Positions 9,561 through 63,927 of a DNA stretch of 64,000 bases are shown here, one piece after another. Under the pieces are notes generated by a model that was not told where the DNA came from, made no database searches, and worked only from the letters and a program-made list of their open reading frames with translations. Source of the DNA: Agapetus fuscipes. Taxonomy: Eukaryota; Arthropoda; Insecta; Trichoptera; Glossosomatidae. Location of the stretch: assembly GCA_951799405.1 (NCBI GenBank), contig OX637344.1:4526001-4590000 (forward strand). Direction: 5' to 3'. The position numbers and the translations under genes are program-made. Position 1 is the stretch's first letter. Each line of letters opens with the position of its first letter.

Positions 9561-9566
9561 AAAACA

Positions 9567-9989
9567 CTTCAGTTGAAGTGGAGGTTTCCCAGCTCTCGAG
9601 GGTACTGGTACTCATTTTTCGTGAAGCTGAGTACACCTATTTTATTTTGGGTTTTGAAATAAACACCGAAACGGGAAATCATTTCTGACGCCCTCGGTGG
9701 GATTTGAACCCTGAGTACACGGATGGAAAGCAAGCATGCTACCAACTGAGCTATCGACCGGACTTTTTACGAGCTTGGTTGTCGCTACAAAGTGCCAATT
9801 CTCAAGCAAGACCCAGTTGCTGTACGGCTGGATGGACCTTTGGTGACCGATCTGTGGTAAATGGATATGATTTTTTTAATCCAACGAAGAGCATATTTGA
9901 AAACATAAAAAGTATTTTTTTTTACCCAACTGATATTCGAATCCTTCCTTTTACGAGTGCTAATCGTTACTAGTAGACTACGGACCGGT
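9567..9989 (-). mobile_element. SINE-II/SINE-I composite
   Basis: On the minus strand a SINE-II (9763-9989; head ACCGGTCCGTAGTCTAC at its 5' end) runs through AAGCTCGTAAAA directly into a SINE-I head with A and B boxes (9567-9762). This order and joint recur at 14898, 16749, 17030, 41435 and 53721. The copy keeps the GTCAGAAATGATTTCCC segment that some composites lack. The SINE-I 3' end is truncated. Confidence 0.8.
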
Positions 9990-9996
9990 CAAAAAT

Positions 9997-10860
9997 TTGA
10001 CGAAAAAAACTCTTACAGCTTGTTCACACGACAACGCATTCTGCCCGGATTGTTTATGGTGTGTCTATGGCACATTGATACCGACTTTGATGTATGTAGG
10101 TGAAGCATGGACAATGAATGATAGCGAAGTAAGTAAAATATGTACGGTGGAAATGAAGCATTTGAGAAGCATGACAGGAAAATAGAGTTAGGAATAAAAA
10201 GGTAAAAAAAGAATGTAATTTTAAAGAGGATGTGAAAGTTAAGGTACAAAAGAATTTGATGAGACGGTTTGGGCATGTGGAAAGAGTGAATGATATAGAC
10301 TGACAAAGTATGTATACCGAGGTAGTGTGAAAGGAAAAAGAGGTAAGGGACGATCGAGAAAATTATGGAGTGATCAGATTGTGGAGATTGTGAAAAAACG
10401 GGATGTACAAAGTGAGCGTAAAAGAAGAAAATGCATGAAAAAGGTGATGGATATGAATGAATTGAAAGAAGTAAGTAAGGATGACTTGGACCGGTCCGTA
10501 GTCCGTAGTGGCAACACTTCGGACTCGTAAATGGAAGGTTGTGGATTCGGATCCCGGTGGAGCACAAAAATATACCATTTATATCTCGAATGTGCTCTTC
10601 GCTGGGTTGAAAAATTCATAAAAACCTTTACCAATGACCGGTCACCATAGGTCCATCCAGCCTTACAGCAACTAGGGTCTTGCTTGAGTATTGGCGCTTT
10701 GTAGCGACGACCAAGCTCGTACCCCTCTGCGGCACTACAACAAATGTCATAGACCCCTAGAGTCTTTAGAATCTAGGGAGTCTCCCGCACAGGATTTCTT
10801 AAAAAAAAAAAAAAAAAAGGGTAGGAAAAAATGGAGGCAGCTTTGCAGAGGCTCGGAATG
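9997..10860 (+). pseudogene. LINE-A ORF C-terminal part, split by SINE-II
   Basis: The frame encodes TLIPTLMYVGEAWTM, then EMKHLRSMTGK, a FGHVERVND segment (after frame changes) and KGKRGKGRSRKLWSDQI, followed by RRKCMKKVMDMNELKEV. These are the C-terminal signatures of endonuclease/RT proteins of non-LTR elements. The ORF breaks at about 10488, where a SINE-II begins, and resumes at about 10822 with RKKWRQLCRG. The order matches intact LINE-A, so the SINE inserted into an existing copy. Several frameshifts show that it is dead. The catalytic RT domain is absent. The overlapping minus-strand ORFs at 10013-10634 are antisense shadows. Confidence 0.8.
10487..10818 (+). mobile_element. SINE-II with LINE-B tail, full length
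   Basis: A tRNA-like head (A box GTAGTCCGTAGTGG, B box GATTCGGATCCC) is followed by the SINE-II body with TGTGCTCTTCGCTGGGTTG and CCATCCAGCCTTACAGCAAC. After CCAAGCTCGT it changes into CTCTGCGGCACTACAAC... and GGGAGTCTCCCGCACAGG, the 3' end of LINE-B, and closes with poly(A). It is nearly identical to 38055-38386, so recently active. Confidence 0.85.
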
Positions 10861-11714: not shown

Positions 11715-12258
11715 TTTTTAAGGAATTCTGTGTGGGAGACTCTATCGGGGCTATTCTTAGACATTTTAGTCGTCGGTTGAGCCCACGCTTTGACAAACTA
11801 ATGATGCATTTGTATGAAGATCTGTCAATCCAAGATGGCCGCAAGTGAACAGCTGATTTGTCTTCATACAAATATTACCAAATTCGGTAGGTAAAAATGA
11901 CCGTGGTGATGAAATTTTCAGACCGGGCACCATTTGTTTGTCAAAGCGTGGGCTCAACAGACGACTAAAATGTCTAAGAACAGCCCCGTATGGGTCTATG
12001 ACACTTGTTGTATTTCCGCAAAGGTGTTGGGGATGTGGTGGTTGATGTCCTGATCCTTTTTTTGCTGGACTGTTCAGTGGCTGTATAGTGCTGTAGTGTG
12101 TGTTGCGCTGTGTTGCCTTTGTTTTGAGACACTGAAAGGAAGTGGCGATTGATGTTGGTTTAGAATAGGGCTAGGTTAAATTGAGGTGGAAACACAGATA
12201 CAGGTAACTCGTTCCATAAGCGGGCAGTTTGGCAAAGGAATGAGTCGTGTCCTTAGTC
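11715..12258 (-). pseudogene. LINE-B C-terminus and 3' UTR, split by MITE-1
   Basis: On the minus strand the coding end reads DSFLCQTARLWNELPVSVFP, the TARLWNxLP motif found near the C-terminus of many non-LTR polyproteins, and stops soon after. The 3' UTR runs to CAACAAGTGTCATAGACCC, is interrupted by the MITE at 11746-11988, and ends in the LINE-B terminal block and a short A run. It shows that the 3' end borrowed by SINE-II belongs to a LINE. Only the last part of the ORF is present. Confidence 0.75.
11746..11988. mobile_element. MITE-1, 243 bp, 3-bp target duplication
   Basis: Ends CGGGGCTATTCTTAGACATT and its complement form inverted repeats of about 55 bp. TAT lies on both sides (11743-11745, 11989-11991). 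A second copy at 22922 has TTA on both sides. Three-base targets are typical of PIF/Harbinger elements; no transposase is encoded. Confidence 0.8.
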
Positions 12259-14897: not shown

Positions 14898-15260
14898 GAA
14901 AAAAAACGCAACTAAGCCACACATATTGTGTAACTTCTTGCCTGCATTATCCCCGAAGGGGTCGCATGTGGCGATTCGGGACCTATTAATTTTTACGGGT
15001 AAGGGGGCCGGCCTCACACCAACCACTTTGAGTTGAAGTGGGGGTTTCCAGGCTCCCGGGGGACTGGTTCTCATTTCTTGTGAAGGCTGAGTACACCTTG
15101 GGATCGAACCCTTGCTCTCGGCATGGAATGCAAGCATTCTACCAATTGAGCTATCGATCTTTTAACGAGCTTGGTCGTCGTCGCTACAAAGCAAGACCCA
15201 TTCATTGTAAGGCTGGATGGACCTTTTGATGAGCGGTCTTTGGTAAAGGTTAATGAATAG
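14898..15260 (-). mobile_element. SINE-II/SINE-I composite, deletion subfamily
   Basis: SINE-II body (15162-15260, 5' truncated) joined by CTCGTTAAAA to SINE-I. After the B box the sequence jumps to AAGGTGTACTCAGCC, so about 75 bp, including GTCAGAAATGATTTCCC, is missing. The same joint is in the 41435 and 53721 copies. Confidence 0.8.
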
Positions 15261-15261
15261 T

Positions 15262-15383
15262 TTAGAAATAGGTTCACATGAGGCATGTGCAAGCGCGAAC
15301 TTGTACGTGTCTGGTTGTGGGAATGCATGTAATGTGAATCTCCAATGGGACATATCTTTGCAACTTAGATTAGATTAGAAAGA
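15262..15383 (+). mobile_element. LINE-A 3' end, AGATT tail
   Basis: The last about 115 bp of the 3' UTR: GGTTCACATGAGGCATGTGC through TTGCAACTT and AGATT repeats. Confidence 0.75.
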
Positions 15384-15935: not shown

Positions 15936-15958
15936 AAGACTGATACGATAATAATAGT

Positions 15959-16225
15959 AGGATGATTTGATGAGCGTTTTTGTTCTCTGAATGATACCTC
16001 AAGAGCCCTCTGTGAGCTTGGTAGTCGCAATAAGAATCGCCAATTACCTACCAAACAAGACCTCAGTTTCTGTAAAGCTGGATAGACCTTTGTGGACCAG
16101 TATTTGGTAAAGGTATATGAATATTTAACCCAAAAAAGAGCATGTTTGAAGCCATATTCACGCCAGGATTCGAAACCACGACCGTCGATTTACGAGGCCG
16201 AAGCATTACTACTAGATGGACCGAT
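15959..16225 (-). mobile_element. SINE-II with LINE-C tail
   Basis: Diverged SINE-II. Its 3' end, at the left, reads GAGGGCTCTTGAGGTATC and then the LINE-C terminal region ending near CAAATCATC. Confidence 0.7.
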
Positions 16226-16748
16226 TTACGCTTCATACAAACTACTTCCATCATCATCATCACAAACTACTTCTTTCTTTTGAAAATATCTCCCCTGTTT
16301 CAGGAAAAGTTGGCAAGAGTTGCCAAGGTTAAATACTGTCTTTTGTTTCGCAAATATTCATTAAAGTTTTAAGCTATGTATTATTTTATACATAGCTATA
16401 ATTTGGGACGATTTTTGTTTTCAGACTCAAAAATATTCCAGAAAAATTATCAATTGATCCATATATATGTATGATTAAATATTTTTTAACGCACAGAATA
16501 TCGAAAAATTCAGGGGTTTGTCGATAAGGGTTCTTAATGGAGAAAAAAATATAAAAAGCCCGGGTTGTTTTTTTTGCTGTTGTCTTTTATTGCGGCGCTG
16601 TATGGACATTTGAATAAATGGGGAATAAAAAGATAAAGAATTTTAAGTACGCTGATATTATTTTTGCGTAAAAAGGGTTTGTGGATTAAAAAAAAATCCC
16701 TTCTGCATATTTTGTTTTCTTTTAAATTGTTTATGAAATACCTCTGAA
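16226..16748. other. AT-rich; one LINE-A scrap
   Basis: 16290-16340 resembles the LINE-A block CCCCTGTTTCAGG. Nothing else is recognised. Confidence 0.35.
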
Positions 16749-17462
16749 CTGGTCCGTAGTCCAGTGGTAACACTTCCGACTCATGAATGGAAGGTTATGG
16801 GTTCAAATCCCGGGGGAGCACAAAAAATATACAATTTATATTTTCATAAATGCTCCTTGCTGGGTTGGAAAACTTGAGCTTTACCAAAGACCGGTCAAAA
16901 AAGGTCCATCCATCCTTGCTTGAGAATTGGCGCTTTGTAGCGATGACCAAGCTCGTTAAAAGTCCAGTCCATTGCTCAGTTGGTAGAATGCTTGCATTCC
17001 ATGCCGAGAGCAAGGCAACCATTTTCAGTTGAGGTATGAGTTTTCCTTCTCCCGGAAGGCTGGTTCTCATTTCTTGTGAAGGCTGAGTACACCTTGCCAG
17101 TATTTGTTTTAGGTTTGAAGTAAACACCGAAATGGGAAATCATTTCTGACACCCTCGGTGGGGATCGAACCCGTGCTCTCCGCATGAAATGCAAGCATTC
17201 TACCCACTGAGCTATCGACCGGACTTTTTACAAGCTTGGTCGTCGCTACAAAGCGCCAATTCTCTCGTAAAACTCAGTTGCTGTAAGGCTGGATGTACCT
17301 TTTGTGACAGGTTTTTGATAGAGGTTCATGAATTTTTCAACGCAACGAAGAGCATATTAATATGAAAATATAAATGATATTTTTTTTGTGCTCCGCTGGG
17401 ATTCGAACCCACAACCTTCCATTTTTGAGTCCAAAGTGTTACCACAGGACTACGGACTGGTC
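16749..17462. mobile_element. Palindromic pair of SINE-II/SINE-I composites
   Basis: 16749-17025 is SINE-II joined to a SINE-I head on the plus strand. 17030-17462 is a SINE-I body and head followed by SINE-II on the minus strand. The two composites face each other with SINE-I in the middle, giving an inverted repeat of about 700 bp. A LINE-A tail starts exactly at the right edge. Confidence 0.75.
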
Positions 17463-18425: not shown

Positions 18426-18504
18426 CTGAGGCTCTTGACTAGAGTTGGGAGAGTATTCATGATTTGTTTTGAAAATTGTGAATATGTATATAGATATCTT
18501 AAAG

Positions 18505-24230: not shown

Positions 24231-24407
24231 GGACATACGACAGATAAGCACAAAGGGGGAAAACTGTTTAAATTGAAATCGTTTTTTTTACTATTTACAT
24301 CTGATAGATTAACATGTCCTTACGAAAGACGCACCACCAAAAGTTTATCCAGTCTATAGTAATTGGGTTGATTGAGAATTATCGCTTTCTATAACAACGA
24401 CTTTGTT

Positions 24408-24440
24408 TGAAGAGGGCTCTTGAGGTGTGATTCACATATA
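24408..24440 (+). mobile_element. LINE-C tail scrap
   Basis: AGAGGGCTCTTGAGGTGTGA and ATTCACA match the LINE-C/SINE-II 3' end; nothing precedes it. Confidence 0.5.
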
Positions 24441-24639
24441 CTCTGCACTTACCAAATACAACAGTCTAATATTTATCTACATTTTTTTTAAGATGAAGGG
24501 TTTGTGTATTGCTATTGTGAAGATTCATTTTAAATTAATGATGTAAAAATAAAACACAACGTTATTCTTCACGAGTCGATTTATTTCCTCGAGCTCTTAC
24601 GATGTTATCACATGACGATTCCTTGACTTCTAGGTTGAA

Positions 24640-28030: not shown

Positions 28031-28292
28031 TAATACTATTATACTCCATAGTTGTGGGACTTTGAAAAGGAAAATAAAAAAATTGGAAATAAAAGCAACT
28101 ATGCTGCACATATAATGATGCCCTTTTCAACCGTACTATAATCAAAAAACCTATTTATTTAAACATGTAAAGATGCCAATAATTTAATTTTGAAGTGATG
28201 GTTTTTTTCGCACATTTATTGTGAAACTCACCGAGTTATTGGTTTGTCATATAAATGAACGCATACTGAAACAGGAAATGCGTTGTTTTAGA

Positions 28293-28540
28293 GTGAATCG
28301 CACCTCAAGAGCCCTGGAGAATGCTATAAAAAGCAATAATTCTCAAGCAATACCCAGTTGTTGTAAGACTGAACGGACCTTTGGTGACCGGTCTTTATGG
28401 GACCGGTATTTTTTTATGGTTTTTCAACCCAACGAAGAGCATATTAGAAAATATTAATAGTATATGTTTTGTGGTCCGCAGGGAAACGAACCCACGGCCT
28501 TTCATTTACGAAGCGCTCACCACTAGACTAGGGACCGGTC
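28293..28540 (-). mobile_element. SINE-II with LINE-C tail
   Basis: The reverse complement has head, B-box region, CTCTTCGTTGGGTTG and the 3' end CAGGGCTCTTGAGGTGCGA. The post-head region is diverged. Confidence 0.75.
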
Positions 28541-29381: not shown

Positions 29382-29485
29382 TTTTTTTTTTTTTTTTTTT
29401 TTTTAAGAAATCCTGTGCGGGAGACTCCCTAGATTCTAAAGACTCTAGGGGTCTATGACACTTGTTGTAGTGCCGCAGAGGTGTT
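29382..29485 (-). mobile_element. LINE-B 3' terminal fragment inside SINE-III
   Basis: T run then AAGAAATCCTGTGCGGGAGA through GTAGTGCCGCAGAG: the last about 100 bp of LINE-B with its poly(A) on the minus strand. GTGTTT on both sides is a candidate 6-bp target duplication. Confidence 0.75.
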
Positions 29486-30192: not shown

Positions 30193-30489
30193 AACATGTT
30201 AGGAGATTACTGTTGGAGTCTGAAAATGGACTTGGTGAATGCTAAATACGTAAGCAAATCCTAAGTAAGTACCCATTTCTTTAACACGCTTTTAATTCAC
30301 TACTTATTTTCTGAAGCCCCTTTGAACCCCTTTTAATCCGGTTGTTTGTGGTATAAAAAGAAAACTGAGCGTAGATTCGGAACCAGTACGAAGAAAACCT
30401 GTAGGATCACCCAACAATATGTACAGGACATAATTTGTTTTTGTTGACTAGGGAAATTAGGAATATTTATTGGAATACAACTGTTTTGT
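30193..30489. other. No recognised feature
   Basis: Nothing recognised. Confidence 0.3.
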
Positions 30490-30637
30490 GTGAATCACAC
30501 CTCAAAAGCTTTTGGTGACCGAAATTTAGTAAAAGCTTCTTCCACCCAGCGAAGAGAAGTAAGTGGTTTTTTTGTGCTTCCGCTGGAATCTAACTCACGA
30601 CCTTCCGAAGCCTTCTAAAACCATAAGAACACCGACC
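30490..30637 (-). mobile_element. SINE-II with LINE-C tail, internally deleted
   Basis: LINE-C-type end (TGAATCACACCTCAAAAGC) at the left, then the body near the B box and a diverged head; the middle of the body is missing. Confidence 0.6.
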
Positions 30638-31950: not shown

Positions 31951-31967
31951 GATTTATAAATGTTTAT

Positions 31968-32032
31968 TCAGCCTTACAGCAACCGGAGTATTTTGTGAAA
32001 TGGCGCTTTCTAAAGCAACGATTAAGCTCGAA
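31968..32032 (+). mobile_element. SINE-II body fragment
   Basis: CAGCCTTACAGCAAC and TGGCGCTTTCTAAAGC, without head or tail. Confidence 0.55.
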
Positions 32033-33160
32033 AACAATCTAGAAAAAGGCCTGAAAAATTACAAAGCATCATCTGTTTATTAATATGTGTATATTTATTA
32101 TTCAATAGAGATACTAGTATTTAAAAGTATGCGGCATACTTAAAAGTAATTAATTCGTTTTTTCTTTTAGATCTCAAGTTAATTATCCTACTAAAAGGGT
32201 TAAACCCCTGGAGGGGAGCTTTCGTTCATAACAAAGAAACCACAGCTGCCTTTTTTGGAATTCACGTTTCCATCCCTTGTTTTCTCTATTTTTCATTGCT
32301 TTTCACCAATTTTTAAAAAACTATTTTTCTTTCCCCATTTTCATTACCTTTTCTCCATTTTTATCTCAGTTTTTTGCTACTATTTCCCCAATTTACATCC
32401 CATTTTATTTTACTATTTTCCCCTACACTTTCATTATCACCTTTTCCCCAAATTTTCCTCACGTTTTTTTCATTTTACATACCATTTTGTGGTATACGAG
32501 TTTTACTTTAAGCTCACAAACCCAAAAATAAAGTAATTGAGGCATTATTTTTTTTAACAGTTAATTTGATCGTTACAAGCTTCAGACGTGCTTTTTAATG
32601 GTTTAATCTTCTCTTTTTCATTCAATCGAGGAGATTTTTCTCCTAAAATTTTTACTTTAAAAAAAAAGTGTAACATTAAAAAAAATCTATTTAGACTCAA
32701 AGCTATGTTTCCTGCAAATATTTTGTCTGAAAAGCCCTTATTTTTTTTAACTGTCCATTTCAAAGGGATTGCAAACAAAATTATTTACGTCGCTTATTTT
32801 CTGTCAAACTGTTTTGTTTTTCAGATCAAAGCTAAAAAGATATATTATTTTAAGAACACAACAATTGCTTGTTTCAAAATAAAAGAATACACTTGTCGAC
32901 ATTCATTTTCATTTTGTTTTATTTTGACACGATATTTATTTTCTGACAGAAAGATACGAAATATTGTCTTTTTCTTGTTGTTATGAGTGGAATACAAATT
33001 TATATTTTGTAATAATACAAAAATATATATACATACATAACACAAAAAAATAACATTAAAAAAATAAAAACATTGCCTGGCTTCACGATGATTTTTTTTA
33101 TAAAAGCTAATCAAATTGAAAAAAAAACTTATGCATCAATAATATTGTCATCTTTTTGTT
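32033..33160. other. Homopolymer-rich AT sequence, no gene
   Basis: C/T-rich then A/T-rich low complexity. ORFs at 32255-32536, 32588-32986 and others encode Phe/Leu- or Lys/Ile-rich strings with no domain. No repeat family recognised. Confidence 0.45.
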
Positions 33161-33984: not shown

Positions 33985-34235
33985 AAATTAAAACAGCAGA
34001 AGTAAATAGACTGACTATGTATATATATACAGAAGAAGTGTGAAAAGAAACAGAGGTAAGCGACAGCCGAAAAAAGTATGGTGTGATCAGATTGAGGAGA
34101 TTTGGAATGAATGAGATGCACAAAGTGAGTGTAAAAGACGAAAATGTACAAAAAAGGTGATGGATATGAGTGACGTATGTAAGAATAGGAAAAAATGGAG
34201 GCAGCTCTGTAAAGGCTCTGGCCACCTCTAGTGGA
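33985..34235 (+). pseudogene. LINE-A ORF fragment, frameshifted
   Basis: After frame changes the reading gives the CTKKVMDMSDVCKNRKKWRQ-like end of LINE-A (AAATGGAGGCAGCTC at 34192). It then diverges into GGCCACCTCTAG rather than the NVGG end seen at 60295. It is a degraded copy of a variant LINE-A. Confidence 0.65.
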
Positions 34236-34679: not shown

Positions 34680-35235
34680 CCATGACAGAACGACACAGTG
34701 ACAGAACGATACAGTGACAAAACGACACACAAAAGAATGACTCATTTAAGAATTATACAGTGACATAACGACACATGACAGAACGACACAGTGACAAAAC
34801 GTCACATGATGAAACAATGATACAGTGACATAACGAAACATGACAGAACGACACATGTCAGAACGACACAGTGACAAAACGACACATGCAAGAATGAGAC
34901 ATGAATGAATGATACAGTGACATAAGGAACATGACAGAACGACACATCAGAACGACACAGTGACAAAACGACACATGCAAGAATGGGACATGAAAGAATG
35001 ATACAGTGACATAACGACACATGACAGAACGACACAGTGACAAAATAACACATGACAGAACATCACAAGAAAGCCGTCGTGTCATGTGACGTTTTTTCAT
35101 GTGCCGTTCTTTCATGTGTCGTTTTGTCACTGTGTCGTACTTTCATGTGTCGTTTTGTCACTGTGCCATTCTTTTATGTGTCGTTCTGTCATGTGTTGTT
35201 CTGTAATGTGTCGTTTTGTCACTGTTTTATTCTAA
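34680..35235. repeat. Inverted minisatellite built from ACGACAC words
   Basis: From 34680 to about 35064 the units GACAGAACGACACAGTGACA and close variants repeat with a period of about 14-30 bp. From about 35080 to 35235 the same words run on the other strand (TGTCGTTTTGTCACTGTGTC). The turn lies at about 35065-35080, so the two arms can pair extensively. Long ORFs here are translated repeat. Confidence 0.8.
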
Positions 35236-35702: not shown

Positions 35703-35729
35703 AATAAGGAAAAAAGGATAGTAGTCGTT

Positions 35730-35834
35730 TTTTTTTAAGAAATTCTGTGCGGGAGTCTAGGGGTCTATGACACTTGTTGTAGTGCCGCAGAGGTGTTCAC
35801 GAGCTTGGTTGTCGCTGCTAAGCGTCAATACTCA
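35730..35834 (-). mobile_element. SINE-II with LINE-B tail, 5' truncated
   Basis: T run, LINE-B end with an internal deletion, GTAGTGCCGCAGAGGTG, then the SINE-II body end GAGCTTGGTTGTCGCTGC. Only the 3' part remains. Confidence 0.75.
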
Positions 35835-35835
35835 G

Positions 35836-35912
35836 GGGTGACATTGGAAAAAAGAACCATTTTCTACAGCATGGGTGGTTAGCCGCATACCAACCTATAA
35901 GTTACGGAACAT
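35836..35912 (-). mobile_element. LINE-A fragment
   Basis: GGGGTGACATTGG and ATGGGTGGTTAGCCGCATAC: the 5' part of the 3' UTR, directly next to the SINE-II piece. Confidence 0.6.
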
Positions 35913-38054: not shown

Positions 38055-38386
38055 ATCTTGGACCGGTCCGTAGTCCGTAGTGGCAACACTTCGGACTCGT
38101 AAATGGAAGGTTGTGGATTCGGATCCCGGCGAAGCACAAAAATATACCATTTATATTTCGAATGTGCTCTTCGCTGGGTTGAAAAATTCATAAAACCTTT
38201 ACCAATGACCGGTCACCAAAGGTCCATCCAGCCTTACAGCAACTAGGGTCTTGCTTGAGTATTGGCGCTTTGTAGCGACGACCAAGCTCGTACCCCTCTG
38301 CGGCACTACAGCAAGTGTCATAGACCCCTAGAGTCTTTAGAATCTAGGGAGTCTCCCGCACAGGATTTCTTAAAAAAAAAAAAAAA
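38055..38386 (+). mobile_element. SINE-II with LINE-B tail, full length
   Basis: Starts TTGGACCGGTCCGTAGTC. Head with A and B boxes, body, CCAAGCTCGTACCCC joint, LINE-B end and A16. Near-identical to 10487-10818, with only a handful of substitutions, so both are young. Confidence 0.85.
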
Positions 38387-39425: not shown

Positions 39426-39690
39426 ATAATAATAATAATAACAGGCTGATTTATTTTAAATTACACATGATAAGAGAGCGCCGTTTTTGTGTGTGTCACA
39501 CCTCAAGGGCCCTCTCCGATCATGGATAAGACTTTCTAAACAAGTGTGCCTTGAGTGCTCCTCGAAATACACCCACAGATTTGGAGTTCTTCACTCCGGG
39601 TGGCAGTCTGTTCCACTCCACCGGCCCCGCAACACGGAAAGCGCGATTAGCATTGTTAAAAGTCGACAATTGTTGGAAAGCGCTCTATAA
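39426..39690 (-). pseudogene. LINE-C C-terminus and 3' end
   Basis: The minus strand reads NRAFRVAGPVEWNRLPPG, then VFRGALKAHLFRKSY and a stop. RVAGPxxWNxLP and LKxHLF are the C-terminal motifs of L2/CR1-like elements. The ORF runs straight into GAGGGCCCTTGAGGTGTGAC, a hairpin, CGGCGCTCTC and an (ATT)n tail. It shows that the tail carried by many SINE-II copies comes from this LINE. RT is absent. Confidence 0.75.
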
Positions 39691-41328: not shown

Positions 41329-41434
41329 ATGCTACTTGAATTTATGAATTTTATCTGAAAAAGTTATGACCCTTAACCACTGAATGGTATTGTTAAGTTT
41401 TCGCGAGAAAAACTCGAGCTATCTCGAACAATAC

Positions 41435-41943
41435 GCAACGCAACTCAAACTCGCAACTAAGCTACACATATAGTGTAACTTCATGCCTGCGTTATCCCCG
41501 AAGGGGTCGCGTGTGGCGATTCGGGACCTATTTATTTTAACGGGTAAGGGGGCCGGCCTCACACCAACCACTTTCAGTTGAAGTGGGGGTTTTCCAGCTC
41601 CCGGGGGGGCTGGTTCTCATTTCTTGTGAAGGCTGAGTAAACCTTGAGATCGAACCCTTGCTCTCGGCATGGAATGCAAGCATTCTACCAATTGAGCCAT
41701 CGACCTTTTTTACGAGCTTGATCATCGTCGCTACAAAGCGCCAATTCTCAAGCAAGACCCAGTTGCTGTAAGGCTGGATGGACCTTTGGTGACCGGTCAT
41801 TGGTAAAGGTTTATGAATTGTTCAACCCAGCGAAGAGCAAATTTGAAAATATAAATGGGATATTTTTTGTGCTCCGCCGAGATTCGAACCCACAACCTTC
41901 CATTCAGAGTCCGAAGTGTTACCACTGAACAATAAACCGGTCT
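41435..41943 (-). mobile_element. SINE-II/SINE-I composite with 9-bp target duplication
   Basis: 509 bp. The minus strand gives a complete SINE-II head and body, CTCGTAAAAAAGGTCGATGG joint, then a SINE-I that lacks about 75 bp after the B box, ending in GTTGCG-type repeats. GAACAATAC is at 41426-41434 and 41944-41952. A perfect duplication around the whole composite shows that it was inserted as one unit. Confidence 0.9.
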
Positions 41944-44754: not shown

Positions 44755-44995
44755 CATGACTCATTCCTTTGCCAAACTGCCCGTTTATGAAATGGTCTAC
44801 CAGTATCTGTGTTTCCTTCTCAATTTAATCCGGTTTTATTCAAAACCAACATCAATCACCACTTCCTTGCAACGCCTCACGACAGAAGCAACAACACAAG
44901 CAACACTTCTGCGGCACCCTTCCAGGGGGACATAGACCCCCAAGACTTTCAAGAATTGGGGAGCCTCCCGCACAGGATTCCTAAAAAAAAGTGTT
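44755..44995 (+). pseudogene. LINE-B C-terminus and 3' end
   Basis: DSFLCQTARL, a stop where Trp is expected (TGA for TGG), then NGLPVSVFPSQFNPVLFKTN. The frame continues across CTTCTGCGGCACCC and GAGCCTCCCGCACAGGATTC into poly(A). This places the block that SINE-II borrows at the 3' end of LINE-B. RT is absent. Confidence 0.8.
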
Positions 44996-45990: not shown

Positions 45991-46253
45991 GTTTTTTTAA
46001 AAAAAACATATTTGTGAAGAGTAATGCAAATCACCAACCTATTCTGCCTGGCCAGAAACAGGTATTAATATCATCAATTAATAATTCATTATTGTTTATT
46101 TAAATGAGTTATTAATTAATAATTACCCAATAATATCTGTTGAACCAGGGTCAAAGTTATGGTCAAATGACTCATGCGGGGATCGAACCAACGTTGTTCT
46201 ATTCCAAACACGCTAGAAAGGTCAGCCCACATGGCCCCCTAATAGCACCGACA
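45991..46253 (-). mobile_element. SINE-III, nearly full length
   Basis: Minus strand: head with GGGGGCCATGTGGGCTGACC, B-box GGTTCGATCCCCGC, ATTAAT-rich middle, CTGTTTCTGGCCAGGCAG and A-rich end. A short SINE-II head (minus) follows at 46270-46303. Confidence 0.75.
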
Positions 46254-47205: not shown

Positions 47206-47462
47206 CGCTACCTCAGTTCTTGTTTATCGTATACGCCATTGAGAAAATTTTACATGAGCAATGTTTGCATGTGTACTGGACCAATGTGTCTTATGAAAAC
47301 AAGAAATATATTTAAAAAATATTTAAAGGAACTCTCACATTATCGAGTTTACGGTTTTTCTTAGCTCAGATTGTCTAGAATTTGATTCATAAGACAACTG
47401 CATGAAAAAGTCATATTTGACAAGATTGGCGTATACGATAAACAAGAACTGAGGGAGCGAAC
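47206..47462. mobile_element. MITE-2, full length
   Basis: Left end CAACTCGCTACCTCAGTTCT and right end AGAACTGAGGGAGCGAACTG pair over about 40 bp, including CTTGTTTATCGTATACGCCA. Length about 257 bp. No unambiguous target duplication. Confidence 0.75.
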
Positions 47463-52380: not shown

Positions 52381-52950
52381 TCGACCGGTCTGTCATCTAA
52401 TGGTTAACACTTCTAACTCGTAAATGGAAGGTTGTGAATAAAATACGAGTCTACCATCTATATTTTCAAATATGCTATTCGTTGAGTAAAAAAAATCCTA
52501 TACCTTTACCAAAGACCGGTCACCAAAGGTCCATCCAGGCTTACAGCCACTGGGTCTTGCTTGAGTATTGGCGCTTTTTATAGCGACAACCAAGCTCGCA
52601 TAGGGCTTTTGTGGTGTCTAATCTAATCTAATGTAATCTAATCTAATCTAAGTTGCAAAGATACGTTACATTGAAGATTCACATTACATGCATTCTCACA
52701 ACCAGACACGTACAGGTTCTCGCTTGCACATGCCCCATGTGAACCTACAACATAAAAACCAAATCTCCAATGGACATACACCCTGCAACTCTTGCCGTCC
52801 TTCCTTGAGACAGGGGTAACATTGGCAAAGTGAACCATTTTTACAGCATGGGTGGTCAGCCGCATACCAACCTATAAGTCAAGGAACAATGTGTGATTCA
52901 CACAAAAACAGTTCTCACCAAATAAATCCTTCTAACATTTTATTATTTTC
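52381..52950 (+). mobile_element. SINE-II with LINE-C tail, split by LINE-A
   Basis: Head and body 52381-52617 reach AGGGCTTTTGTGGTGT. LINE-A fills 52618-52888. The LINE-C tail resumes at GTGTGATTCACACAAAAACA and ends near 52950. Overlap of GTGT on both sides may be a short target duplication. Confidence 0.8.
52618..52888 (-). mobile_element. LINE-A 3' UTR, AGATT tail, inside SINE-II
   Basis: Tail of six TCTAA-type units (one variant), then a clean 3' UTR ending at ACCAACCTATAAGTCAAGGA. Confidence 0.85.
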
Positions 52951-53720: not shown

Positions 53721-54175
53721 ATGACCGGTCCGTAGTTCAGTGGTAACACTTCGGACTCGTGAATGGAAGGTTGTGGGTTCGAATCCCGGTGGAGCACAAA
53801 AAATATACCATTTACATTGTCAAATTTTCTCTTCGCTGGGTTGAAAAATTCATAAACCTTAACCAATGACCGGTCACCAAAGGTCCATCCAGCCTTACAG
53901 CAACTGGATCTTGCTTGAGAATTGGCGCTTTGTAGTGACGACGAACAACCTTGTAAAAAGGTCGATTGCTCAATTGGTATAATACTTGCATTCCATGCCG
54001 AGAGCAAGGGCTCGATCTCAAGGTTTACTCAGCCTTCACAAGAAATGAGAACCAGCCCCCCCGCGAGCTGGGAAACCATCACTTCAAATGAAAGTGGTTG
54101 ATGTGAGGCCGACTCCTTTATCCGTAAAAATAAATAGGTCCCGAATCGCCACATGCAGTGATTCGAGTTTATTCC
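53721..54175 (+). mobile_element. SINE-II/SINE-I composite, deletion subfamily
   Basis: Complete SINE-II (head ACCGGTCCGTAGTTCAGTGG, B box GGTTCGAATCCC), joint CCTTGTAAAAAGGTCG, SINE-I head, then a jump from CTCGATCTC to AAGGTTTACTCAGCC. 3' end truncated after CGCCACATGC. Same deletion as at 14898 and 41435. Confidence 0.85.
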
Positions 54176-56936: not shown

Positions 56937-57226
56937 TTACCGGTACGTAGTCCAATGGTAACGCTTTTGACTCGTAAATGTAAGGTGTGTTCGAATTAAT
57001 ATACAAGTTATATTTTCAAATACGCTCTTCGCCGGTTTGAAAAATTCACAAACCTTTACCAAATACCGGTCCCCAAAGGTCCATCCAGCCTTGTAGCAAC
57101 TGGGTCTTGCTTGAATATTGATGCTTTCTATTTCTATATTGATGCGATGACCAAACTCGCAGAGGGTTCCTGAGGTGTAATTCACACAAAAACAGCGCTC
57201 ACCCAATAATCATCCTAATATTATTC
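56937..57226 (+). mobile_element. SINE-II with LINE-C tail, full length
   Basis: Head, diverged B box, body, a small duplication of TATTGATG, ACCAAACTCGCAGAGGGTTC joint, then GTAATTCACACAAAAACAGC and ATCATCCTAATATTATT. Confidence 0.8.
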
Positions 57227-57378
57227 CCCCACTTTAAATGAAAGTGGTTGGTGTGAGGCCGGCCCCCTTTCCCGTAAAAATAAATAGGTCCCGAATCGCC
57301 ACATGCGATCCCTTCGGGGATATCGCAGGCAAGAAGTTACACATACGTGTAGCTTAGTTGCGAGTTGCGTTTGCGTAT
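57227..57378 (+). mobile_element. SINE-I 3' half, composite type
   Basis: Carries GGTGTGAGGCCGGCCCCC and GGTCCCGAATCGCC, variants otherwise seen in the deletion composites, and ends in GTTGCGAGTTGCG. Starts exactly at the end of the preceding SINE-II. Confidence 0.7.
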
Positions 57379-57437
57379 TATTAACTTCATGGAAAGGTCA
57401 TCTTTGAATCAAATGGTAGACAAGCCAAACAAGCACT

Positions 57438-58629
57438 GGGCGGGGAGGACTGGAATATTGCTTTCTCGCGTTTTCTGCCGAGGTTATTTGTTTTTACTGT
57501 GGATTATTATAAAGCCAGGAAAATCACCGAAATGATATCGGACTAAAAGTGAAACTTGAAATGTAAACAAACTTGCTTTACGGCCTGCGAAGCGGTGTTT
57601 GTGTTGTTTTTAGTGCCTGTTATATTATAATGACGATGCTTATAATAGAGACGGCAGCTAATGAAAAGTTTTTGTTATTGTCGAAAACTCATTTTGGAGC
57701 ATAGTTTGTTGTATATTCTTGTTTGAAAATGCTGCTTTGCAAAGTCGAGGCTTGTTATATTTGAAGCGTTTTCCGACGACTATTTCAACGGTATACTTTA
57801 CAAATCTACAAAATAAAATAACAATAATTGCCCTATAAGCTATTGGAAAAAAAAAGTTTCTCTGGTAGTAATATGCATGAAGACAAAGCGCTTTCTTTGT
57901 GAAATCGGACTTTGAGTTTATAGTGTGCGGCATCTCCGAACGAACGAGTTCAACTGATTGAAGAAAGTCGCTCGCGCGGTTTTTATACACTGGCTGTGCG
58001 GTAAATTTCGGGAGGGGGCGTGGCTTGTCACTACAGTGGGAACAGGAGGTGTGGTATTATTTTTAAAATTTGTCTGTACAATAATAATGCACGTTTAATT
58101 AAACTCTAACCTTTTTACTTTTCTGTTGAAGCTAAACAAAAACAAAGTTTACAATAGCTTTATTTACTTACATAATTAATACAACTGATTTTCTGTGTTT
58201 GATCAGAACATGATATTTGAGATCTTTTGCTTTTATTGAAACTCGTTCTGTTGTGCAGTCATTTGACGTTATCCCAACATAATTTTTTCCACTCTCTTAG
58301 TTATCTGCTCTGGCAAAAAGTGTGAACGCCACACGAGAGCTGGAAGCAATTCAAAATCATTCACAGATGAACGGGGGAGAGACGGAAAATAACATATGAA
58401 ACCATCGGATAACGGGTATCCGGTTGTATCCTCGGTGTTACTCAATTAGGGATACCAAAAAGTACGAGTTCCGGAAAAAATATATTATTACGCGTGTTTT
58501 TTAGCCCCTTGAAGGTGCAAACGAATTGTTTGCGAAATCAGTCGTGGGATTTTAATATACTTGCCGTAATCGAAAACATAATTGTTTTTAAATAAAGTGT
58601 AAAACTTTCACTTTCATGGCCGGTGTTAA
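57438..58629. other. Non-repetitive stretch, no gene recognised
   Basis: About 1.2 kb without recognised repeats. The 110-codon minus-strand ORF at 57658-57990 has no domain and mixed composition. Higher GC near 57930-58060. A host regulatory or exonic segment is possible but not supported. Confidence 0.35.
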
Positions 58630-58895
58630 AAATAAATAGATCACTTTTGTGTTCTTTCGGGTTTCACCATGTTCTATTTGCAGCTCCCACATATGTCGAC
58701 GTTTCGCTTTCACGAGCAGAAAGCATCTTCAAGGCGAGTTTTCAAAGCACCGTGGTGGTTTTCGTTGTATTCGCGGATGCGGACCGCCACGGCGTTTTGA
58801 AAACACGCCTTGAAGATGCTTTCTGCTCGTGAAAGCGAAACGTTGGCAGATGTGGGAGCTGCAAATAGAACTTGAAACACAAAAGTGATTTATTT
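58630..58895. mobile_element. Foldback element with two facing hammerhead-like motifs
   Basis: Arms of about 110 bp pair: TGTTCTATTTGCAGCTCCCA at the left, TGGGAGCTGCAAATAGAAC at the right. Each arm holds a motif with a long stem II (GCTTTC/GAAAGC) before GAAAC. A degenerate relative is at 31020. Confidence 0.75.
58807..58847 (+). ncRNA. Hammerhead-like motif, right arm
   Basis: Stem I GCC (58807-58809) with GGC (58845-58847). Core TTGAAGA (58810-58816). Stem II GCTTTC (58818-58823) with GAAAGC (58831-58836). GAAA 58837-58840. Stem III AC with GT, no loop. Cleavage-site T58844. The mirror motif lies at about 58694-58735 on the minus strand. A loop-less two-pair stem III could only close between two molecules. 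Confidence 0.5.
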
Positions 58896-59372
58896 ATAAA
58901 AATTGTTCTTATTTTTATGTTTTTAGATGAACCCTCACAAATAACGATCACAAAGCTGAACAGTTAAAAAACCACTCAGTATTCGAACCATCTGTGAATT
59001 AAATAAATTAGCTGAAGTTTTTTTATTAAATGAAACCCGTAAATCATAACAATACTTACCTCATTTTCGAAAAAAACGACAGATTGCCGTCTTTGGTATT
59101 ATTCAACTTAATTGTTGACTTAATCAGACTGCATAAAGGCATATCACATTGAATTTCGATTGAAATGGAAGCAATCCCGTTATTCGGGACAACTCTAGAG
59201 ATGATAGAATGAGAGAGAGAAAGAGAGAGAGAGAGAGAGATGAATCGGCGAGAGCAGAAAGTGGGAATAAAGAAATACTTATTGGGAAACTCATATTAGA
59301 GGGATTACGCCCGTAGTCCCGTAAATGGTTTCCAATGTAATCCCACCCCGAGGCTAAAGATGCGGCTTCCAA
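58896..59372. other. No gene; (GA)n microsatellite
   Basis: (GA)n at 59209-59240. Otherwise nothing recognised. Confidence 0.4.
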
Positions 59373-59469
59373 GCCTCTTCTTCCTCTACCGAGAACTACT
59401 AAATGCGGCCTTTTCTGTATTAACTACCCAACAATATGGAGGGTTTCACAAAGCAAGATACCAAAGACC
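59373..59469 (+). repeat. Arm of local inverted duplication
   Basis: About 97 bp that recur in inverse orientation at 59634-59730, inside the adjacent SINE-II. Landmarks: TACCGAGAACTACTAAATGC and GGAGGGTTTCACAAAGCAAG. Confidence 0.8.
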
Positions 59470-59476
59470 AAACGTT

Positions 59477-59873
59477 AAAAAAAATAAAAAATTAGGCTGA
59501 TTTATTTGGTGAGCACTGTTTTTGTGTGTATCACACCTCAAGAGCCCTGTGCGAGCTTAGTCGTCGCTGTAGGAAGCGCCAATTCTCAAGCAAGACCCAG
59601 TTGCTGTAAGGCTGGATGGACCTTTTGATGACCGGTCTTTGGTATCTTGCTTTGTGAAACCCTCCACATTGTTGGGTACTTAATACAGCAAAGGCCGTAT
59701 TTAGTAGTTCCCGGTAGAGAAACAAGAGGCCTGAAGAGGTTGATGAACTTTTCAACCCAGTGAAGAGCAAATTTTAAAATATAAATGGTTTTTTTTTTTT
59801 GCTCCGCCGGGATTCGAACCCACAACCTTCCATTTACGAGTCCGAAGTGTTACCACTAGACTACAGACTGGTC
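59477..59873 (-). mobile_element. SINE-II with LINE-C tail, 7-bp duplication, inverted filler
   Basis: AAACGTT at 59470-59476 and 59874-59880 frames the element. The minus strand gives head, body and LINE-C tail, but the body is interrupted after TACCAAAGACC by about 90 bp that copy the flanking 59373-59469 in inverse orientation. Confidence 0.8.
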
Positions 59874-59921
59874 AAACGTTGTATTTCACCCGTTGGATAG
59901 AGTCTGGATTAGAAGAAGTAA

Positions 59922-60077
59922 ACCGGTCCGTAGTCTTCGTAAATGGAAGGCTTTGGGCTCGTATTCCGGCGAAGCATAAAAAATATATAATTTATGTTTT
60001 TCAAATATGATGTTCGCTGGGTTGAAAAATTCGAACTTGTAAATGGAAGGTCGTGGGTTCTAGCCTTAGCGGAGCAC
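59922..60077 (+). mobile_element. SINE-II fragments, head partly repeated
   Basis: A head lacking the A-box region, body to TTCGCTGGGTTGAAAAATTC, then a second head piece with CGTGGGTTCTAGCC and GGAGCACA. Confidence 0.65.
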
Positions 60078-60087
60078 ACAATTTAAA

Positions 60088-60236
60088 CCCATTGTATTAT
60101 TTCCTCCAGAGTCATAATTTTCTTCATACAGGCTCTTCTTTTATTATGACTCTGGATATTCCATTCATTCGCAATTTCGGATATTTGGTCCATCCATACC
60201 TTTCTCGGTCTTCCTCTGCCACGACATCCATCTATT
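60088..60236 (-). mobile_element. Inverted 5' piece of LINE-A copy
   Basis: The minus strand encodes RGRGRPRKVWMDQISEIANE and RRACMKKIMTLEE. The next residues of LINE-A (EMKEVCKD) begin on the plus strand at 60239. Confidence 0.8.
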
Positions 60237-60668
60237 CTGAAATGAAAGAAGTATGTAAGGACAGAAAGAAATGGCGGTTGATCTGTAATGTTGGCGGCTA
60301 GGGTTTATTAAATTGGAATTTGTTTTTATTTGTAAACGGATATTTTGTATTTGGATATTATTATTTAGTGATGTATAAAATGTAATTTGTCGTGTGTGTG
60401 TGTTCCTTGACTTATAGGTTGGTATGCGGCTGACCACCCATGCTGTAAAAAATGGTTCACTTTGCCAATGTCACCCCTGTCTCAGGGAAGGACGGCAAGA
60501 GTTGCAGGGTGTATGTCCATTTGAGATTTGGTTTTTATGTTGTAGGTTCACATGGGGCATGTGCAAGCGCGAACTTGTTACGTGTCTGGTTGTGAGAATG
60601 CATGTAATGTGAATCTCCAATGTAACATATCTTTGCAACTTAGATTAGATTAGATTTAGATTAGTATT
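60237..60668 (+). mobile_element. LINE-A ORF end and full 3' UTR, AGATT tail
   Basis: EMKEVCKDRKKWRLICNVGG then stop (60299-60301), followed by the 3' UTR with TATGCGGCTGACCACCCATG and AGATT units. This is the cleanest link between ORF and 3' UTR in the window. Confidence 0.85.
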
Positions 60669-61377
60669 ATCAACTGTGCTCTTTGTTAGGTACAATATTT
60701 GCTCAAACCCTCATACCCGTCATATGTTTCATGTCATGTATTTGTCAGAATGACCCACAGCACATGGACTCTTATACAAAAGTATATTTTTCTTAAGTGG
60801 CAGAGCCTTCCTGTGAATTAATAGCAACGGCACGAAAAAACAAGAACCTCAAGGTCAGACGCGTGCCCATTACTCTAAAAGTAAATGATCTGATGTTACT
60901 GAAGCTAATAGCATACCTCGGGCGGCACTCCTTTTGGGATTGTTGCTAGATCGCGGGTAGCGGATACGTTCAACAAGCACTCATTATTACAAAAAAAAAA
61001 TGATCTAAGAGAGCCTTGCAAATTAATATAATTTGTGACAAACAAAAACGGCGTCTTCGTTTTACGTTTTATAATTAAATTATGTGAATATAATATGTAA
61101 ATACAAGATCCCTTACAATGTTGTTCACTTCATCAATCCGAATGTGCACGCAAAAGGTTTTAGAAGGCATGCAAATGTATGCAAATTTCAGCGAGTAGTA
61201 TGCAAAAGGAATCGTTGTACCTAATTATGTGGAATCTTTGAAAATAAACATTGTATGGCTCGTTTTAGAGAGGTCGCTTTTAGGATTCGGGTCAGGTTTT
61301 AACATAAAATCTGTCAGACATAATCAAATATGTGTAGGTACTCAAATAACTCAAAGGCTAAAAGTTCAAATACGTTT
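60669..61377. other. No recognised feature
   Basis: Nothing recognised. Confidence 0.3.
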
Positions 61378-61657
61378 TCCAGTCGATGGCTCAGTTGGTA
61401 GATTGCTTGCATTCCATGCCGAGAACTCGGGTTCGAATCCCATAACGGTGTCAGAAATGGTTTCCTGTTTTGGTGTTTATTTCAAACCCTTAATAAAGTA
61501 CACCCAAAGATTACTCCGCCTTCACAAAAAAATGAGAACCAGCCGCCTCGGGAGCTGCGAAACCCCCAATTCAACTGAAGTGGTTGGTGAAAGGTCAGCC
61601 CTATTACCTGTAAAAATAAACAGGTTCACTCGCCACATGCGATCCCTTTGGGAAGTT
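61378..61657 (+). mobile_element. SINE-I, 3' truncated
   Basis: A box TGGCTCAGTTGG, B box GGTTCGAATCC, body to CACATGCGATCCCTTTGGG. Confidence 0.8.
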
Positions 61658-61698
61658 TTTGTAAATTCTTAATTTATTTATATTTTTACATTATTAAC

Positions 61699-61958
61699 CT
61701 AAAATCCAAATCTAAATCTAAGCTGCAAAGATATGTATCATTTGAGATTAATATTAAATGCATTATCACAAGCAGACACGCATAATTTCGCGCTCACACA
61801 TGCTGCATGTGGACCTACAGTAGAAAAACACAATCTCAAATGAACATAAGCCCTGCAACTCTTGCCGACCTTCCCTGAAACAGGGGTATCATTGGCCAAG
61901 TGAATCATTTTTTACAGTATGGGTGGTCAGCCTCATGCCAACCTATAAGTCAAGGAAA
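61699..61958 (-). mobile_element. LINE-A 3' UTR, AGATTT tail
   Basis: Same variant as 8789 and 35440: ACACGCATAATTTCGCGCTC and AGATTT units. Confidence 0.8.
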
Positions 61959-62429
61959 ACAATCATTACCCGATATTAAGTACTGACACTTTCTAGAAAA
62001 TTAAACGCTTCTTGTTTTGTGTTTCATTTCTGGATAAAGGTAGCAATACCAACATTTATCTTCGTTTTTCGATATCGTTTGCGTTGTTAAAGACAGAACT
62101 GTTTTTTTGTTTCTCGACAGTAACTAAATTCCCGAGGGACTCGTTTTACTAGCGACACAAGGCAGACAGTTTTTTTGAATAATAATATGTCCTACACAAG
62201 ACTTGTTTCGTAGTTTTTTTATTTGTCGTAAGAAGTTAAGCGGGTCAAATGTTTTTGGCAGGCATTATATGAAATGGCTTACATCTTAGAAGAGATAAAA
62301 ATAAAATGGACGAAAAAATATCATGGTTTATTGGAGAGAAAATCAATTTTCCGACGTTTTGTTGGCTTCTTACTCAACATAATCAAAAGATATGCTTTTA
62401 ACGTTAAATCCTGGATTATGCATTATCCT
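61959..62429. other. No recognised feature
   Basis: The 65-codon ORF at 62274-62471 has no domain. Confidence 0.3.
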
Positions 62430-62703
62430 TGGTCGGTCCGTAGTCTAGTGGTTAGTTTTTCGGGTTTGTAAGTGGAAGGTTGTGGGTTCGGATTCTGGCG
62501 GAGCACAACAAAAAAATTGTGCATTCATGGAGTGGAATTAATTTTTAATTTTGATTAAAAATAACTTTTTTTTATACAAAAAAAAAATGTCGTTGTGTTA
62601 GCAAATATGCTATTCGCTGGGTTGAAAAAATCATATACCTTTACCAAACACGGTCGCCAAAGGTCCATCCAGCCTTACAGCTCAAATGAGTCTTGCTTGA
62701 AAA
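62430..62703 (+). mobile_element. SINE-II, body with extra 87 bp
   Basis: Head with B box GGTTCGGATTCTGG. About 87 bp of A/T-rich sequence (62512-62598) lie inside the body. It ends at TTGCTTGAAAATTTGCC, where MITE-2 starts. Confidence 0.7.
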
Positions 62704-62965
62704 TTTGCCAGTTCGCTGCCTTAGTTCTTGTTTCCCGTATAGACCTAATTTTACATTAGCAATGTTTGCGTGCGTACTAAACCAATGTGTCTTATGAAAA
62801 CAGAAAATTGATTTACAAAATATTTAAAACAACTCTCACATTATCGAGTTTTACATTTTTTCTTAGCTCAGATTGTGTAGAATTTGATTCATAAGACAAC
62901 TGCATGTAAAAGTCATATTTGACAAGATTGGCGTATACGATAAACAAGAACTGGGGGAGCGAGTT
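62704..62965. mobile_element. MITE-2 copy
   Basis: Left CAGTTCGCTGCCTTAGTTCT, right ACAAGAACTGGGGGAGCGAG. The inner part matches the 47206 copy. Confidence 0.75.
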
Positions 62966-63078
62966 GCTGTAAGGCTGGATGGGTCTTTGGTGGCCGGTCT
63001 TGCGAAGAGCATATTATTTGAAAACTAAATAGTATATTCTTGTGCTGCGAAACGTTACCACTAGACTACGGATCGGTC
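62966..63078 (-). mobile_element. SINE-II with internal deletion
   Basis: GTTGCTGTAAGGCTGGATGG, GGTGGCCGGTC, then the head ACCACTAGACTACGGATCGG. Confidence 0.65.
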
Positions 63079-63139
63079 ATTTACCGGATGATATAACCTT
63101 ATACTAACGAAAACGGTTCGTTACTCCCAAAATAACAAT

Positions 63140-63186
63140 TTGCGTAGACCAAATGGTATTTCCAAATAACCGTTTGGTCTACGCAA
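63140..63186. repeat. Short perfect hairpin
   Basis: TTGCGTAGACCAAA (63140-63153) pairs with TTTGGTCTACGCAA (63173-63186) around a 19-base spacer. Could be a tiny MITE remnant. Confidence 0.7.
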
Positions 63187-63371
63187 GTGCTCCAGGATAT
63201 TTTGTTCACGGGTTTGTTGTGGGCTAGGGGTTCATTTGTTATTAGAAGGTCATCCAAAGGGAGCGACACCTTTCGGTTCCGAATAAATTACGCCATTTGG
63301 GTCTATGTGTGCCCCACACAGGAACAATTTCGATACTTTAAAGATAAAACGGAATAAGTGACACATTAACT

Positions 63372-63672
63372 TGACCGGTCCGCAGTCCAGTGGTTACACT
63401 TCGGACTCGTAAATGGAAGGTTGTGGGTTCAAACCCCGGCGGAGCACAAACAATATACCATTTATATTTCAAATTTGTTCTTCGCTGGGTTGAAAAATTC
63501 ATAAACCTTTACCAAAGATCGGTCATCAAAAGGTACATCAAGCCTGACAACAACTGGGTCTTGCTTGAGAATTGGCTCTTTATAAAGCAACGACCAAGCT
63601 TGCAAAGGGCTTTTGAGGTGTGATACACACAAAAACAGCGCTCTCCAAATAAATCATCCTAATTTAATTTAA
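63372..63672 (+). mobile_element. SINE-II with LINE-C tail, full length
   Basis: Head ACCGGTCCGCAGTCCAGTGG, B box GGTTCAAACCCC, body, AGCTTGCAAAGGGCTTTTGA joint, LINE-C end to ATCATCCTAATTTAATTT. TTAAC occurs at both edges and in the related site at 18530 in altered form. Confidence 0.85.
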
Positions 63673-63699: not shown

Positions 63700-63927
63700 C
63701 AGTGGCGAAGGGTGCCATACAAGCTGGTTTCCATCGATTTCCCGTTCAAAATGAGGCAGAAATAATAATAAAGTAGACTGCATGGTTTCAATGGGGGAAA
63801 ATACCTATTGTTTATTTGGTTTTAAATGTGTTTTTTTACTTTGTGCCTATATTTTTTAACTACTTTGTTACATCATTTTAAAAGGGAAGCCGATGGGTAC
63901 CGGCTTGTATGGCACCCTTCGCCACTG
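63700..63927. mobile_element. MITE-3, hAT-type, 228 bp, 8-bp duplication
   Basis: A perfect 25-bp inverted repeat begins CAGTGGCGAAGGGTGCCATA, extending imperfectly to about 58 bp. ATACATAC is at 63692-63699 and 63928-63935. CAG tips and an 8-bp target are the hAT hallmarks. No transposase is encoded. Confidence 0.95.

What the first reader, a model, noticed from the sequence alone, without database searches (positions are those of the whole stretch)
56937..63672. One SINE body, three alternative 3' modules
The same SINE-II head and body ends in the LINE-B tail (10487, 38055, 35730), the LINE-C tail (15959, 28293, 52381, 56937, 59477, 63372), or a whole SINE-I (9567, 14898, 16749, 41435, 53721). 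The switch always falls just after the CAAGCTCG word. This looks like repeated tail exchange that lets one SINE use different LINE machineries.
Basis: partly seen in the sequence, partly recalled or inferred. Interest (0 to 1): 0.88.

Follow-up and report, generated by a model that had tools for sequence, protein, structure and literature searches.

The report
One SINE family, three alternative tails
A short parasitic DNA element in this stretch of genome occurs with three different end pieces joined at the same point of its body, which looks like an unusually clear case of the known way in which such elements swap the ends by which they borrow the copying enzymes of larger elements.

Summary
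A SINE with a tRNA-like head (SINE-II, core about 230 nt) ends in tail C (7 copies with a readable joint), tail B (3) or a SINE-I that starts at its own 5' end (6). All 8 exact CAAGCTCG words in SINE-II lie at the joint. Exceptions: 28540 has lost the word; 30606 joins its C tail about 70 nt upstream. Each class was inserted as a unit: empty paralogous sites for a C unit (63373) and a B unit (10489), and a 9-bp repeat around one composite (chance about 1% per unit). Chance insertion at the joint is not supported. Tails B and C also occur after non-SINE sequence that reads like LINE coding ends, but no family search confirmed it. Tail B has a fold partly kept by compensated changes; tail C and SINE-I folds are not proven. 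I and B copies share a body marker absent from C (9 of 9 against 0 of 7): two body sublineages. Tail exchange and SINE dimers are in print. The genome search did not complete, so the genome-wide test was not run. New member of a known kind.

The parts
63373..63670 (+). SINE-II with tail C (tail 63603-63670); paralogous empty site at 18493-18552
59489..59873 (-). SINE-II with tail C, body interrupted between 59661 and 59734; 8-bp repeat AACGTTTG around the whole element
56939..57225 (+). SINE-II with tail C; followed at 57226-57382 by a 5'-truncated SINE-I with TATTATT on both sides, read as a nested insertion
52383..52935 (+). SINE-II with tail C, tail split by an S3 repeat at 52619-52888
28280..28540 (-). 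SINE-II with tail C; the CAAGCTCG word is lost here
15950..16223 (-). SINE-II with tail C
24308..24470 (+).
30454..30606 (-). SINE-II with tail C joined about 70 nt upstream of the usual joint (exception)
10489..10814 (+). SINE-II with tail B and poly(A); paralogous empty site at 34077-34218
38061..38385 (+). SINE-II with tail B and poly(A)
35728..35837 (-). 5'-truncated SINE-II with tail B (part of the tail hairpin missing)
41401..41942 (-). Composite SINE-II + SINE-I, beta subtype; 9-bp repeat GTATTGTTC around the whole unit
53723..54156 (+). Composite SINE-II + SINE-I, beta subtype, 3' end cut
14907..15263 (-). Composite SINE-II (5'-truncated) + SINE-I, beta subtype
9562..9990 (-). Composite SINE-II + SINE-I, alpha subtype, SINE-I cut at its 3' side
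16748..17015 (+). Composite SINE-II + first part of SINE-I, alpha-type joint; abuts the next in inverted orientation
17016..17462 (-). Composite SINE-II + SINE-I, alpha subtype (sixth copy)
39440..39660 (-). Presumed LINE-C 3' end: a 44-codon open stretch with its stop, followed by tail C (only copy seen)
44755..44990 (+). Presumed LINE-B 3' end: coding-like remnant, then tail B; 44755-44893 is 81% identical to 12249-12111
11989..12249 (-). Second presumed LINE-B 3' remnant
29391..29484 (-). Tail B alone, inserted in a repeat whose empty paralogues are at 46155-46240 and 11208-11115

Best explanation
SINE-II is a SINE with a tRNA-like head whose 3' end was replaced as a module. Its body came to carry tail C, tail B (both probably 3' ends of LINEs), or a whole second SINE (SINE-I) with SINE-I's own tail. 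Each fusion then spread as a unit, most likely by target-primed reverse transcription by the enzyme that reads that 3' end. The joints most likely arose when a reverse transcriptase, having copied a 3' end (or a whole SINE-I RNA up to its 5' end), switched to the 3' end of a SINE-II RNA. Shown here: shared joints and insertion as units. Read from the sequence but not confirmed by a family search: the LINE nature of tails B and C. Inferred: the template switch, and which enzyme moves which class.
For: Same joint in copies with different flanks. The I copies keep SINE-I from its own 5' end (7 of 9 solo copies have a readable start like AGTCCGGTCGATAGC) after a T or TT and 4-6 A. Empty sites: C unit 63373 at 18493-18552, 80.6% over 62 nt; B unit 10489 at 34077-34218, 77.6%. 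A 9-bp repeat around composite 41942-41401 and an 8-bp repeat around C unit 59873-59489. Tails B and C also follow non-SINE, coding-like sequence. Tail B fold: 3 of 23 pairs changed on both sides, 5 of 500 shuffles as high.
Against: Only 2 of 15 units have a repeat of 8 or more bp abutting the start, and over the same 140-nt search space chance gives 8-mers in 554 and 9-mers in 199 of 20000 random pairs, so these repeats are modest evidence. All three compensated tail-B pairs come from one LINE-B sequence, which also breaks three other pairs. Tail C and SINE-I tail covariation does not clearly exceed shuffles (65 and 46 of 500 as high); for tail C a slid register does as well. The tree does not separate I from C. 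No Pfam match for the presumed LINE pieces. 30606 joins elsewhere.
Confidence: 0.76

Rival explanations
1. The composites began as an ordinary insertion of SINE-I into the A-rich 3' end of one SINE-II copy; read-through transcription then made the pair one mobile unit. No template switch is needed for the I class.
For: The linker is T or TT and 4-6 A, as an A-run target or A-tail would leave. The window holds an analogue: a 5'-truncated SINE-I directly after the C tail at 57226, with TATTATT on both sides. A published cockroach SINE, Sbg9, is a dimer of two resident SINEs (PMC9191728, passages).
Against: By eye, no remnant of tail B or C follows SINE-I in the two composites with a readable 3' end (41942, 15263). 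Does not explain tails B and C.
Confidence: 0.35
2. The modules are independent chance insertions into existing SINE-II copies.
For: Nested insertions are common here: S3 in the C tail at 52619, SINE-I after 57225.
Against: 15 of 16 copies with a readable joint share it within about 7 nt; empty sites lack the whole C and B units.
Confidence: 0.03
3. The shared joint arose by DNA recombination or gene conversion between SINE-II copies and other repeats at a short shared sequence, not by reverse transcription.
For: Short shared letters near the joint (CAAGC in LINE-B at 44931, TCG near 39513), by eye.
Against: Shared stretches are 3-5 nt; module starts match the 5' end of SINE-I and lie 3-4 nt before the first helix of tails B and C.
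Confidence: 0.12

Closest known systems
CORE-SINEs with different LINE tails (MIR with L2, MIR3/Ther-2 with L3, Mar-1 with RTE)
   Same: One SINE superfamily listed with 3' ends of different LINEs (table in PMC3747384, passages seen)
   Different: Different elements; here the alternatives include a complete second SINE and the joint is seen inside one 64-kb stretch. Sequence not compared.
HaSE1/HaSE2/HaSE3 of Helicoverpa armigera
   Same: HaSE1 and HaSE2 share head and central domain with different 3' ends; HaSE3 shares body and tail with HaSE1; template switching proposed (PMC3272025, passages)
   Different: HaSE2's 3' part matches a mariner-like DNA transposon, not a LINE or SINE
Sbg9 of Blattella germanica
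   Same: Dimeric SINE made of Sbg1 and Sbg8; Sbg8 and Sbg9 contain RTE-related sequence (PMC9191728, passages)
   Different: No parallel LINE-tailed forms at the same joint appear in the passages seen
Stringent-type LINE/SINE pairs (UnaL2, ZfL2, SART1)
   Same: 3' stem-loops, shown by experiment to be needed there; here predicted folds only (PMC5135761, passages)
   Different: No experiment here; only tail B has some covariation support

Membership tests
tRNA-derived SINE | tRNA-related head with pol III A and B boxes | tested here: inconclusive
   Head letters include GGTTCGAATCC, a B-box-like word (box recalled, no call). ARAGORN: 0 genes. Rfam: no tRNA match on SINE-II; one sub-threshold match, 26.5 bits against 29, on a solo SINE-I at 6508-6564
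tRNA-derived SINE | 3' end homologous to a LINE | tested here: inconclusive
   Tails B (two remnants) and C (one) follow coding-like non-SINE sequence; no Pfam family for the pieces tried. No LINE seen for the SINE-I tail
tRNA-derived SINE | Target site duplications | tested here: inconclusive
   8-9 bp repeats for 2 of 15 units; chance 2.8% (8-mer) and 1.0% (9-mer) per unit
Stringent-type LINE/SINE pair | Conserved stem-loop at the 3' end shared by LINE and SINE | tested here: inconclusive
   Tail B: 3 of 23 pairs compensated, 3 broken in LINE-B; tail C weak
Stringent-type LINE/SINE pair | LINE enzyme mobilises the SINE in trans | not testable with these tools
   Needs a retrotransposition assay
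Dimeric SINE | Two SINEs joined and amplified as one unit | tested here: met
   Six copies with one joint and linker; 9-bp repeat around one unit
Known conserved-domain superfamilies (CORE, V, Deu, Ceph, Nin, Inv, Pln, Snail, Meta) | The named central domain | not tested
   No library of these domains at hand; the names are from PMC8010984 (passages)

The most novel reading that the evidence does not exclude
The 3' end of the SINE-II body is a natural RNA end that repeatedly accepts reverse transcriptases jumping off complete 3' domains, so that whole tails (B, C, or an entire SINE) are captured end to end at one base position; tail capture would then be a recurrent, mechanically fixed reaction rather than rare illegitimate recombination.
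Probability: 0.2. Interest if true: 0.5.

Novelty: new member of a known kind. Interest (0 to 1): 0.33.

Why it matters
It is a compact natural record of modular SINE evolution: one body, two LINE-like tails and a dimer in 64 kb, with classes of different apparent age. A genome-wide count could show whether tail exchange tracks the rise and fall of partner LINEs and whether exchange has a fixed joint. The principle itself is already in print.

Tried and rejected
Whole-genome clustering of SINE-II, the decisive test, could not be done: the genome search did not answer in any of 11 calls. An exact 24-base body pattern found nothing in viral contigs or genome contigs, collections that are not of animal genomes. 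The organism was not identified: a LINE-like fragment at 54349 had no protein relative at E 1e-5, and six translated pieces gave no Pfam family above its cut-off (one sub-threshold AT-hook). LINE clade labels (CR1/L2/Jockey-like, from a C-terminal WN.LP motif) are recalled only and are not claimed.

Rejected: chance insertion at the joint (see rivals); a single body lineage that swaps freely (the I and B marker argues for two sublineages, though the tree does not show them); a dated order of exchange from the tree (7 of 10 inner branches open); the tail C hairpin as proven (where I had left out the three outermost of the 15 pairs because they mostly do not pair). The SINE-I piece after 57225 was considered as one chimeric insertion event with the C unit; a nested insertion explains it more simply, and the outer repeat there (AATTT/AACTT, by eye) is too weak to decide. 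A match across the joined flanks of the inverted pair 16748/17462 at 39668 lies in S3 sequence and is not counted as an empty site.

Three look-ups found papers not held (Kojima 2018 once, the MetaSINE paper twice), so both were seen only as references in other papers. A search on RT-recognition wording gave no paper.

Full report
Check of the observation. A profile built from seven copies gave 29 matched stretches in the window, and the sequence after each copy with a 3' part was read. Seventeen of the 29 stretches make 16 copies with a readable joint and module: 6 with SINE-I, 3 with tail B, 7 with tail C. Dropped from that count, 12 stretches: 30606 (C tail joined further upstream), 31959 (no recognised module), and ten without a readable 3' end (5754, 11074, 31565, 45812, 55712, 59922, 60029, 62434, 62578, 63078). 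A C tail with a degraded body at 47707 is also left out. The word CAAGCTCG occurs 9 times against a mean of 0.75, and none of 100 shuffles reaches 9. Eight are in SINE-II, all at the joint.

Tails B and C outside SINE-II. Tail C at 39513 directly follows a 44-codon open stretch with its stop; this is the only such copy, and its upstream part has no second match in the window. Tail B at 44931 follows a coding-like remnant, part of which is 81% identical over 139 bases to a second remnant upstream of a tail-B piece at 12027. So the tails exist after other sequence. That this sequence is LINE coding rests on the reading frame and on a recalled C-terminal motif; no Pfam family was found for the pieces tried. 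No LINE was seen for the SINE-I tail.

SINE-I also exists alone in nine places, besides fragments. Seven of the nine have a readable start like AGTCCGGTCGATAGC (by eye). In the composites SINE-I starts at that same point, after CTCG, a T or TT and 4-6 A. Two subtypes exist: alpha (9990, 16748, 17462) keeps GTCC; beta (15263, 41942, 53723) has lost it, and its SINE-I lacks about 65 inner nt (gaps). The shared linker and start suggest one founding junction. The composites' flanks do not match each other except where S3 repeats lie next to two of them in different orientation, so they are separate loci, apart from the inverted pair 16748/17462.

Units, not insertions at the joint. Of 13 joined flanks, three found clear empty sites: the B unit 10489 at 34077-34218, the C unit 56939 together with the adjoining SINE-I piece at four places, and a tail-B-only piece 29484 at two places. 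A fourth, the C unit 63373, matches 18493-18552 over 62 nt at 80.6% with only the unit missing. The composite 41942-41401 is flanked by GTATTGTTC and the C unit 59873-59489 by AACGTTTG (15 units examined). Over the same 140-nt search space such words of 9 and of 8 arise in 199 and 554 of 20000 random pairs, so these two repeats alone would be modest evidence. The other 13 units showed no such repeat of 8 or more abutting the start.

Structure. Tail B folds with a closing helix and an inner hairpin (-25.9 to -29.5 kcal/mol for two SINE copies and the tail-only piece; -22.3 for LINE-B). On five sequences 3 of 23 pairs are changed on both sides (5 of 500 shuffles as high), but all three come from the LINE-B sequence, which also breaks three other pairs; 'further pair types' is not above shuffles. 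The z-scores use single-base shuffles and are only a guide. For tail C the LINE-C fold is shared by C 63373, while 59660, 47707 and 52383 prefer other folds, and covariation is not convincing (12 of the 15 pairs counted). The SINE-I tail forms a hairpin in most copies folded, without clear covariation. In B and C the first counted helix begins 3-4 nt after the body word, so what was exchanged may correspond to the 3' domain.

Lineages and age. All 9 I and B copies have a short form just before the joint (CTTTGTAGCGAC type) and T after the word; none of the 7 C copies has the short form (one-sided exact chance 8.7e-5 if copies were independent, which they are not). Against this, the core tree of 13 copies does not cluster the three classes beyond shuffles (5 changes, as low in 59 of 200), and only the B pair is well supported. 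Core identity within class: B 98.3% (2 copies), I-beta 92.2% (2), I-alpha 76.2-81.3% (3), C 65.5-87.4% (6). This suggests older C and I-alpha, younger I-beta and youngest B, on small numbers.

Literature. CORE-SINEs with L2, L3 or RTE tails (PMC3747384, passages), Helicoverpa SINEs with shared head and domain and different ends (PMC3272025, passages), tail exchange stated as a principle (PMC8010984, passages; PMC5729268, passages) and the dimer Sbg9 (PMC9191728, passages) show that each element of this finding is of a known kind. My paper searches were not aimed at this very family, and the organism is unknown, so whether it has been described is left open.

Verdict. A real, well-marked instance of modular SINE evolution; confidence 0.76 in the modular-unit model as a whole, less in the template-switch step. 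New member of a known kind. The fixed-joint reading is the part with novelty and needs the whole genome.

Noticed in passing
16748-17462: Two composites abut tail to tail inside their SINE-I parts, forming an inverted pair.
   Followed up: partly
15263-15379: A 5'-truncated composite and a 5'-truncated S3 repeat abut head to head at about 15268.
   Followed up: no
60400-60690: S3, a third abundant interspersed repeat ending in TTAGAT-like units; 38 further matched stretches in the window.
   Followed up: no
34681-35225: Two minisatellites of complementary units (CATGACAGAACGACA and TGTCATGTGTCGTTC) lie head to head.
   Followed up: no
3002-3727: 31-bp minisatellite, 23.5 copies, inside a 289-codon stop-free frame.
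   Followed up: no
63704-63923, 1994-2167, 20915-21108: Sub-threshold Rfam miRNA matches, possibly foldback transposons (the reading is a guess).
   Followed up: no
58670-58880: Inverted repeat with arms around CTTGAAGATGCTTTCTGCTCGTGAAAGCGAAACG (by eye).
   Followed up: no
59634-59733 and about 59371-59470: A 100-bp stretch inside the interrupted SINE-II copy recurs 92% identical in inverted orientation just outside it.
   Followed up: no
31959-32033: SINE-II 3' end with the C-type body marker but no recognised tail after CTCG.
   Followed up: partly
24009-24186, 4206-4378, 62782-62955, 47281-47420: Four copies of a further repeat family that serve as empty sites for the unit at 56939.
   Followed up: partly
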